Shown here: in pieces, positions 1,993-43,440 of the stretch
Position numbering within the stretch: position 1 is the stretch's first letter
How the letters are laid out: each line of letters opens with the position of its first letter
From: Thermoprotei archaeon
GTDB taxonomy: Archaea > Thermoproteota > Thermoprotei > Thermofilales > B20-G17
Length of the DNA: 43,440 nt
Direction: 5' to 3'
Assembly: GCA_003650675.1 (NCBI GenBank)
Contig: QMRH01000011.1
Location: 1-43,440, forward strand
Translations under genes and position numbers: made by a program
Notes under the pieces: generated by a model
Seen by the model: only the letters and a program-made list of their open reading frames with translations
What the model was told of the DNA's origin: nothing
The model's database searches: none

Positions 1993-2102
1993 TGCCGGGG
2001 CCGGGATTTGAACCCGGGTAAACCGGATTTCTCCTCTTCTAGCCCTTAATTTGATGGCTGGATTATGAGTCCGGCGCCCTAACCAGGCTAGGCGACCCCG
2101 GC
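1993..2102 (-). tRNA. tRNA-Met(CAT), elongator type, with 35-nt intron
   Basis: On the minus strand the acceptor GCCGGGG pairs with CCCCGGC and is followed by A73. The T arm is CCGGG-TTCAAAT-CCCGG. The anticodon arm is CCGGA-CTCATAA-TCCGG once a 35-nt intron (2029-2063) between positions 37 and 38 is removed. The exon-intron junctions fit a bulge-helix-bulge: 3-nt bulges TAA and AAA cut after their second base, plus an AGCC/GGCT hairpin inside the intron. The CAT anticodon alone could also be initiator or Ile2. The G-C-C-G-G-G-G acceptor and the CGGACTCATAATCCG-type anticodon arm favour elongator methionine. CCA is not encoded. The mature length is 75 nt. Confidence 0.93.
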
Positions 2103-6351: not shown

Positions 6352-6454
6352 GCGGGGGTGCCCGAGCCAGGTCAAAGGGGCGGGACTCAGGATCCCTCTG
6401 GGAGGAGAACTCCCGTGGCGTAGGCCTGCGCGGGTTCGAATCCCGCCCCCCGCA
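6352..6454 (+). tRNA. tRNA-Leu(CAG) with 18-nt intron
   Basis: The acceptor GCGGGGG pairs with CCCCCGC and is followed by A73. The T arm is GCGGG-TTCGAAT-CCCGC, and a long variable arm marks it as type II. The anticodon loop is CTCAGGC after removal of an 18-nt intron (6392-6409) between positions 37 and 38. The junctions form a bulge-helix-bulge: stem CGGGA/TCCCG, 3-nt bulges GGA and AAC cut after the second base, a short CTC/GAG central helix and a TCCC/GGGA intron stem. The mature tRNA is 85 nt and decodes CUG. CCA is not encoded. Confidence 0.95.
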
Positions 6455-42593: not shown

Positions 42594-42791
42594 TCACTCG
42601 TATTCCTTCACAAGTATAGCCTTTATCTTAGCCTTCCCTCCAGTAGGTTCAGCTAACACTGCTCCACACACTATACAACGGGTTACAATTTTAGCGTAGT
42701 TAAATATCACTTGTTCATTACCACAGTCGGGACAACGCACCTTTATGAACTTGCTTTTAGGCTGGGGAACCAGTATCTTAAATTTCCTAAT
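42594..42791 (-). CDS. rps27e: Small-subunit ribosomal protein S27e, probable AUU start
   Basis: A 65-residue frame encodes all of S27e: '[29 protein letters not shown]...[24 protein letters not shown]' with zinc ligands C20, C23, C39 and C42. Between the L44e stop (same frame) and the conserved body there is no ATG, GTG or TTG. The codons are AGG GTC ATT AGG AAA. GAGGTGA, a seven-base match to the 16S anti-Shine-Dalgarno, lies six nt before ATT 42791-42789. The start is therefore inferred to be AUU. The length and position between L44e and aIF2 alpha are exactly as expected. Confidence 0.92.
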
Positions 42792-42797
42792 GACCCT

Positions 42798-43082
42798 TCA
42801 CCTCGCCTCTCCAAGAGTTAATTTACGTACCCTAATTCCCTTTCTATGTCGTATATATCCGCAGGTACGGCATTTAAGCTTCAATACCTGTTTTTTAGTT
42901 ATTTTTGCTGTACGTTTCTGCTCGGGTTTTCTCTTTGAGCCGTAACCCTTCTTCTTGGCTTCGTAACGTCGCTCGCCTTCTGCTAGACTCCTACGTTTTC
43001 CCGCCTTATATATGGTGACAGTATGTACTGTATGTTTACGACATCGTGGACAGTATGTTCTTATCCTCTTTGGAACCTCCAT
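42798..43082 (-). CDS. rpl44e: Large-subunit ribosomal protein L44e (eL42)
   Basis: The 94-residue basic protein begins 'MEVPKRIRTYCPRCRKHT' and ends 'LKCRTCGYIRHRKGIRVRKLTLGEAR', with zinc cysteines C11, C14 and a second pair near the C terminus. It contacts the tRNA E site. The ATG at 43082 gives the family N terminus; a TTG further upstream (43097) lies within the GAGG-containing leader. A TATA-like AAGTTTATCTTAT at about 43122-43134 on the minus strand is the likely promoter of the L44e, S27e, aIF2 alpha, Nop10 operon. Confidence 0.95.
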   Translation of the reverse strand: MEVPKRIRTYCPRCRKHTVHTVTIYKAGKRRSLAEGERRYEAKKKGYGSKRKPEQKRTAKITKKQVLKLKCRTCGYIRHRKGIRVRKLTLGEAR

Positions 43083-43134: not shown

Positions 43135-43229
43135 ACTGTAGCAGATCCCTATAAGAGCTCCTTAGTAGTGGTTGCCTGTGCATGGTTGCCAAAGTGACGA
43201 GAATATCCGAAATACTATGCATGGGTTCA

Positions 43230-43352
43230 TTCCATCTTTTAGGCACCCTTTGACCTACCTACGGGGGCGCCTACACACTTATTCGGCACCCCCTCGGCGA
43301 ATCTAGGGTTTGCCTCGTCCCCCGGCCTACGGCTCATCAGCTCATCGGCTTA
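43230..43352 (-). ncRNA. Candidate structured RNA, family not recognised
   Basis: This is a GC-rich island in AT-rich DNA with no plausible reading frame. On the minus strand, TTTATATC within 43377-43391 would place a transcript start near 43352. The RNA could form a 9-bp hairpin pairing 43285-43293 with 43263-43271, or an alternative 8-bp helix pairing 43265-43272 with 43241-43248. In each helix the one non-Watson-Crick pair is G-U only when the minus strand is the RNA (A-C on the plus strand), which supports the strand. CGG-TAAG-CCG and a direct repeat GATGAGC (twice, about 43328-43344) lie near the 5' end. The 3' end is unclear. It does not match RNase P, SRP or 5S RNA motifs that I know. 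Confidence 0.45.
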
Positions 43353-43440
43353 CCGAAATACATGTACCTAGATATCCAGATATAAATTTCATGGCGAAAA
43401 ACTATAGGTAAAATACTTGCAAATCACCATAATCACGAAA

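What the first reader, a model, noticed from the sequence alone, without database searches (positions are those of the whole stretch)
42594..42800. rps27e appears to start at AUU and would be missed by standard gene calling
Seen: a complete S27e with all four zinc cysteines lies between rpl44e and aIF2 alpha, but its N-terminal region has no ATG, GTG or TTG. GAGGTGA stands six nt before ATT, where the family's N terminus begins. An essential ribosomal protein with an AUU start is notable. In bacteria AUU in infC serves autoregulation; whether a ribosomal protein here uses the same trick is inference. Together with trmY this makes two isoleucine-codon starts in 43 kb, so the lineage may tolerate such starts more than usual.
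Basis: partly seen in the sequence, partly recalled or inferred. Interest (0 to 1): 0.72.

Follow-up and report, generated by a model that had tools for sequence, protein, structure and literature searches.

The report
Ribosomal gene with AUU start
In an uncultured archaeon, the only copy of the gene for ribosomal protein S27e has an AUU where relatives have AUG, GUG or UUG, and the same gene starts at CUG in about half the genomes of a distant methanogen family, so archaea seem to start even core genes at unusual codons that common gene-finding software does not accept.

Summary
rps27e (minus strand, 42797-42594) has no ATG, GTG or TTG before its conserved core. The first canonical codon is GTG at codon 20 of the open frame. 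ATT (42791-42789) sits 6 nt after GAGGTGA, whose TGA is the rpl44e stop. Thirteen other archaeal loci have the same TGA-6 nt-start layout with ATG, GTG or TTG there. Outside one methanogen family, 182 of 183 distinct rps27e loci have a canonical start; this is the only exception. It is the only copy found in this genome.

Two results go beyond the finding. (1) In 771 kb of this genome, trmY, hel308 and ipk also have ATA where relatives start. All three were found without looking at Shine-Dalgarno sites, and all carry at least a 4-nt Shine-Dalgarno match at the same 6-nt distance, against 15% of canonical starts. (2) In Methanotrichaceae, rps27e has CTG (24 genomes) or ACG (1), with no canonical codon nearby, in 25 of 48 genomes.

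An indel artefact is unlikely: 1 frameshift in 323 conserved genes. The initiator tRNA and aIF1 look ordinary. Autoregulation like infC has no support. Related genomes also show near-cognate starts, so this lineage is not shown to be special. There is no protein or read evidence.

The parts
42594..42791 (-). rps27e coding sequence from the proposed AUU start to the TGA stop (65 aa)
   Evidence: NCBIfam NF001629 92.6 bits, PF01667; 67-aa open frame; single copy in genome
42789..42791 (-). ATT codon, proposed start
   Evidence: Aligned with ATG/TTG/GTG starts of relatives; 6 nt after GAGGTGA
42798..42804 (-). Shine-Dalgarno GAGGTGA; its last three bases TGA (42800-42798) are the rpl44e stop codon
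   Evidence: 7-nt match to GGAGGTGATC at distance 6; 13 other archaeal loci have a TGA 6 nt before a canonical rps27e start
42792..42794 (-). GTC, rejected alternative start (3 nt from GAGGTGA)
   Evidence: Only 1 of 32 canonical starts with a 5-nt or longer SD in this genome is spaced 3 nt
42738..42740 (-). First canonical in-frame codon (GTG); would give a 48-aa protein lacking the conserved N terminus
42798..43082 (-). rpl44e (50S ribosomal protein L44e), upstream gene in the same reading frame
   Evidence: NF004425 111 bits
41762..42568 (-). aIF2 alpha, downstream gene (TTG start)
   Evidence: NF003062 323.6 bits
17693..18247 (+). trmY with ATA at the position where relatives have TTG/GTG/ATG (second case in the window)
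   Evidence: PF04013 53.9 bits; relatives' starts mostly at 0 or -1

Best explanation
rps27e is a normal, essential gene whose translation starts with Met-tRNAi at the near-cognate codon AUU (42791-42789). The weak codon is tolerated because the 30S subunit is held in place by a 7-nt Shine-Dalgarno (GAGGUGA) at the usual 6-nt distance. The rpl44e stop lies inside that Shine-Dalgarno, so a ribosome finishing L44e can re-initiate on the spot. It is one of a low-frequency class of near-cognate starts (AUU, AUA, CUG, probably ACG) in archaea that rely on well-placed Shine-Dalgarno sites; rps27e is a repeat case because it follows rpl44e so closely. Shown by sequence: no canonical start, the position, the spacing, single copy, parallel cases. 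Inferred: initiation with Met at AUU, compensation by the Shine-Dalgarno, re-initiation.
For:: ATT is the only plausible start codon; 13 other loci (Thermoproteota, Bathyarchaeota, Asgard, Methanocorpusculum) have TGA + 6 nt + ATG/GTG/TTG; the window has ATT at that site; 182 of 183 other-family loci canonical; trmY, hel308 and ipk have ATA where relatives start (most relatives have ATG exactly at the hel308 site); rps27e, trmY, hel308 and ipk all have a 4-nt or longer SD at distance 6, against 15.5% of 129 canonical starts and 2.1% of random positions. Leaving out rps27e, where the distance was first seen, it is 3 of 3. Methanotrichaceae rps27e has CTG (24) or ACG (1) and no canonical codon nearby in 25 of 48 genomes, 2 nt after the rpl44e stop; the same column is TTG, ATG or GTG in others; one frameshift in 323 conserved proteins. 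PMC10666635 describes termination-reinitiation at short gene distances in Haloferax and cites ATT as the seventh best start codon in E. coli (about 0.3% of ATG).
Against: No proteomics, ribosome profiling or reads. The base comes from one MAG contig, about 650 nt from its end, and no same-species genome was found. A 0.3% codon seems poor for a stoichiometric ribosomal protein. Upstream-stop coupling is not general: the hel308 and trmY starts lie 19 and 21 nt after a stop, and none was found for ipk or rpoD. The numbers are small.
Confidence: 0.82

Rival explanations
1. Sequencing or assembly error, or a recent damaging mutation. Either ATG was misread as ATT, or one extra G in GGG hides a normal GTG start overlapping the rpl44e stop (GTGA), giving [10 protein letters not shown].
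For: Single MAG, near a contig end. Removing one G would put the GTG of GAGGTGA in frame. In G002 hel308 the GTG of the same SD motif is in frame.
Against: Only 1 frameshift-like break in 323 conserved proteins. Several genes would need independent errors beside their starts. A GTG 10 nt upstream follows automatically from GGTGA at distance 6, and relatives with the same rps27e layout start at the later codon. Methanotrichaceae show near-cognate rps27e starts in 25 genomes.
Confidence: 0.1
2. The near-cognate start is a regulatory device: S27e output is set by start-codon stringency, as in infC (AUU) or sigR (GTC, IF3).
For: CTG looks ancestral and has persisted across Methanotrichaceae although one C-to-T change gives TTG. 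Precedent: GTC start of sigR repressed by IF3 (PMC5472188).
Against: In this lineage the start is ATT in one genome and ATG/GTG/TTG in all other Thermoproteota read. No unusual fold at the start. aIF1 ordinary. CTG changes to TTG/ATG/GTG within Methanotrichaceae (about 9 changes).
Confidence: 0.12
3. Start at GTC (42794-42792), as in sigR of Streptomyces.
For: Relatives of the MVKK type start one codon upstream of the ATT column; GTC starts exist (PMC5472188).
Against: Spacing of 3 nt from GAGGTGA, seen in 1 of 32 canonical starts with an SD. Relatives with TGA + 6 nt put the start at the ATT site.
Confidence: 0.04
4. S27e is made as an extension of L44e by UGA readthrough, since both are in the same frame.
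For: rpl44e TGA is directly followed in frame by the S27e codons.
Against: L44e and S27e belong to different ribosomal subunits; a fusion is implausible. In Methanotrichaceae the two genes are in different frames. A full SD lies at the junction.
Confidence: 0.01

Closest known systems
E. coli infC (IF3) AUU start
   Same: AUU used as the start of a core translation gene (established knowledge, also named in the finding).
   Different: infC encodes the factor that discriminates against AUU and so autoregulates. S27e has no such role, and archaea use aIF1/aIF1A/aIF2, not IF3.
Streptomyces sigR GTC start (PMC5472188)
   Same: Conserved near-cognate start in a tightly packed operon; the weak codon sets protein ratio.
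   Different: Bacterial, experimentally shown, IF3-dependent. Here only sequence evidence, other codons, archaeal.
CTG-started small ORFs in Methanosarcina mazei (PMC11456600)
   Same: Ribo-seq evidence that an archaeon starts some frames at CTG (5% of 314 unannotated small ORFs).
   Different: Those are unannotated small ORFs; here a universal archaeal ribosomal protein and several conserved enzymes.
Termination-reinitiation of close gene pairs in Haloferax volcanii and E. coli (PMC10666635)
   Same: Downstream start within a few nt of the upstream stop, with a Shine-Dalgarno at the junction.
   Different: In the passages read, near-cognate starts appear only as a possible cause of rare -5 nt overlaps.

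Membership tests
Ribosomal protein S27e (NF001629 / PF01667) | Full-length profile match above curated cut-off | tested here: met
   92.6 bits vs 70 (residues 5-63 to profile 2-60 of 62); PF01667 78.8 vs 24.5
Ribosomal protein S27e (NF001629 / PF01667) | Four zinc-ligand cysteines CxxC...CxxC | tested here: met
   CPDC and CIVC in the translation
Near-cognate (not ATG/GTG/TTG) translation start | No ATG/GTG/TTG between upstream stop and conserved N terminus | tested here: met
   First canonical codon is codon 20; sole exception among 183 distinct loci
Near-cognate (not ATG/GTG/TTG) translation start | Near-cognate codon at the homologous start position with a Shine-Dalgarno at usual spacing | tested here: met
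   GAGGTGA-6 nt-ATT; 13 loci with the same stop-to-start distance and canonical codon
Near-cognate (not ATG/GTG/TTG) translation start | Initiation with Met shown by N-terminal peptide or profiling | not testable with these tools
   No proteome or Ribo-seq data for this organism
infC-type autoregulation by start-codon discrimination | Gene product itself controls start-codon fidelity | tested here: not met
   Product is S27e, a structural ribosomal protein, not known as a fidelity factor
infC-type autoregulation by start-codon discrimination | Near-cognate codon conserved across the lineage | tested here: not met
   All other Thermoproteota rps27e loci read are canonical; CTG is widespread only in Methanotrichaceae
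Termination-reinitiation pair | Downstream start overlapping or within a few nt of the upstream stop | tested here: met
   rpl44e TGA lies 6 nt before ATT; 2 nt before CTG in Methanotrichaceae
Termination-reinitiation pair | Downstream translation depends on translation of the upstream gene | not testable with these tools
   Needs a two-gene reporter

The most novel reading that the evidence does not exclude
Near-cognate initiation (AUU, AUA, CUG, ACG) is a regular minor mode of translation initiation in archaea, used by roughly 1% of conserved genes behind well-placed Shine-Dalgarno sites. rps27e downstream of rpl44e is a hot spot where a weak start has been kept for long evolutionary times, possibly to set S27e output relative to L44e.
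Probability: 0.4. Interest if true: 0.75.

Novelty: new variant of a known kind. Interest (0 to 1): 0.6.

Why it matters
[quoted passage not shown] Here a universal archaeal ribosomal protein gene gives a clean test: a near-cognate start in one Thermoproteota lineage, and an apparently long-lived CUG start in Methanotrichaceae. Gene callers restricted to ATG/GTG/TTG will truncate or drop such genes, which distorts marker-gene completeness estimates and N-terminal annotation.

Tried and rejected
A first pairwise survey was swamped by antisense frames; it was filtered by overlap and then repeated with coding potential. Most flagged genes then turned out to have a canonical start a few codons in; these were discarded. 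Indel artefact: tested by frameshift counting, unlikely. UGA-readthrough fusion and GTC start: rejected by layout and spacing. Special initiator tRNA: the CAU tRNA with three G-C pairs in the anticodon stem is ordinary. aIF1 divergence: none seen against the relatives aligned. RNA structure at the start: none beyond chance. Upstream-gene coupling as a general rule for all near-cognate starts: not supported. rpoD is ambiguous: CTG fits the SD, but the family's Met1 aligns next to an ATA seven codons later. HEPN and ATPase candidates with CTG are weak. Papers naming S27e together with start codons in archaea: none in the library.

Full report
What is there. On the minus strand rpl44e ends with TGA (42800-42798) and the S27e frame follows at once: TGA AGG GTC ATT AGG AAA TTT AAG ATA CTG. 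No ATG, GTG or TTG occurs before GTG at 42740, codon 20 of the frame. The protein is a full S27e with four cysteines (NF001629 92.6 bits, cut-off 70). The genome (2.07 Mb, 149 contigs; the window is all of contig 11) has one copy only.

Where it should start. Relatives place the start within a codon or two of the ATT column. The same-family genome G001 has ATG at the ATT column; G006, G038 and G153 have TTG there. The layout settles it. In 13 other loci a TGA stop lies exactly 6 nt before the rps27e start, which is ATG, GTG or TTG; the window has TGA + 6 nt + ATT. GAGGTGA gives a 7-nt match to the archaeal Shine-Dalgarno consensus at that distance, and 6 is the commonest distance among canonical starts of this genome (10 of 32 with an SD of 5 nt or more). 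GTC would be 3 nt away (1 of 32).

How rare it is. Among 183 distinct rps27e loci outside Methanotrichaceae, 125 have ATG, 31 GTG and 26 TTG before the conserved Ser; the window is the only one with none.

Other genes of the same genome. In 771 kb (37% of the genome), coding-potential and homology scans gave further conserved genes with no canonical start. trmY (ATA), hel308 (ATA) and ipk (ATA) were checked against up to 30 loci each. For hel308, most relatives have ATG exactly at the ATA position; for trmY and ipk the relatives' starts fall within a few codons of it, most often 0 or -1 for trmY. rpoD (CTG, or an ATA seven codons on), a secreted protein (CTG after a perfect GGAGGTGA, with a signal-peptide-like N terminus) and two weaker CTG candidates are likely further cases. 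The four homology-placed sites all have at least a 4-nt SD match with the same 6-nt distance; canonical starts have that in 15.5% and random positions in 2.1%. The distance was first noticed in rps27e; leaving it out, three of three remain. For rpoD and the secreted protein the SD helped choose the site, so they are not counted.

Is it an artefact? A GTG 10 nt upstream of the GGTG-bearing starts invites the idea of a one-base insertion, and in G002 hel308 that GTG is in frame. But it follows automatically from GGTGA at distance 6. Only one frameshift-like break was found among 323 conserved proteins in the sampled contigs, so several independent indels right at starts are very unlikely. A base error at ATT cannot be excluded without reads.

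A second lineage. Three Methanothrix loci in the first scan also lacked a canonical start. Reading 48 Methanotrichaceae genomes shows the codon 2 nt after the rpl44e stop, behind GGTGGAGGG, as CTG in 32, TTG in 10, ATG in 2, GTG in 1 and ACG in 1 (2 unplaced). In 25 genomes (24 CTG, 1 ACG) no ATG/GTG/TTG lies within eight codons upstream. The near-constant NTG at this column marks it as the start. On a tree of the region CTG is spread over both main branches with about nine changes in all, so it looks old. These are many separate assemblies, so error is not a plausible cause there. Which cultured strains carry CTG could not be established; two genomes with one large contig (G219, G247) have an ATG available.

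Is this lineage unusual? Related genomes also show near-cognate starts: G008 hel308 ATT, G012 and G015 trmY CTG, a G005 ribbon-helix-helix gene CTG. By the pairwise test 2-3 of 248 G000 genes and about 1 of 320 G005 genes qualify after manual reading, which is no clear difference. The initiator tRNA and aIF1 look ordinary. So the data support a low-level habit shared by several archaea rather than a special lineage.

Mechanism. Most likely the 30S subunit is fixed by the Shine-Dalgarno, and, for rps27e, delivered by termination on rpl44e, so that Met-tRNAi can pair with AUU or CUG. Termination-reinitiation at short distances is established in Haloferax (PMC10666635). The same paper cites ATT as about 0.3% as efficient as ATG in E. 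coli, so a natural context must help. Coupling is not general for the other genes. Autoregulation as in infC is not supported. A role in setting S27e output, as for sigR GTC (PMC5472188), stays open mainly because CTG persists in Methanotrichaceae.

Standing of the claim. Sequence, position and parallels are shown; initiation at AUU, the compensating role of the SD and re-initiation are inferred. Published reconstructions from annotated genes find AUG-to-AUU switches in 1 of 61,358 (PMC5622118), but such counts rest on annotation, which may not allow AUU. Archaeal precedent found is limited to CTG-started small ORFs in M. mazei (PMC11456600). The library searched is open-access only, so earlier reports may exist.

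Noticed in passing
L333-L362, L383-L400 (Methanotrichaceae rps27e): rps27e starts at CTG (or ACG) in about half of 48 genomes, 2 nt after the rpl44e stop; other genomes have TTG, ATG or GTG in the same column.
   Followed up: yes
G000 contig C7, 4018-6684 minus (P0001, L131): hel308 with ATA at the start position and an intein between residues 380 and 526 (TIGR01445, TIGR01443, PF14890).
   Followed up: partly
L244 (G008 hel308); L231, L232 (G012, G015 trmY): Other genomes of the same order with ATT (hel308) or CTG (trmY) at the homologous start position and no canonical codon there.
   Followed up: partly
G005 contig C1, 688396 minus and 1013614 minus: Ribbon-helix-helix gene with GGTGA-6 nt-CTG, and a TtuA-like gene with GGTGG-6 nt-ACG and no canonical start near the conserved N terminus.
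   Followed up: no
window 1993-2102 minus and 6352-6454 plus: Two tRNA genes found by Rfam but missed by ARAGORN; their length (103-110 nt) suggests introns.
   Followed up: no
window 43150-43380 minus: GC-rich stretch upstream of rpl44e with long pairing arms; no Rfam match above threshold and folding only slightly better than shuffles (z = -0.89). Could be an undescribed RNA or a leader.
   Followed up: partly
G000 contig C12, about 29910 minus: Secreted or membrane protein with a perfect GGAGGTGA (TGA is the upstream stop) 6 nt before CTG, followed by a signal-peptide-like sequence.
   Followed up: partly
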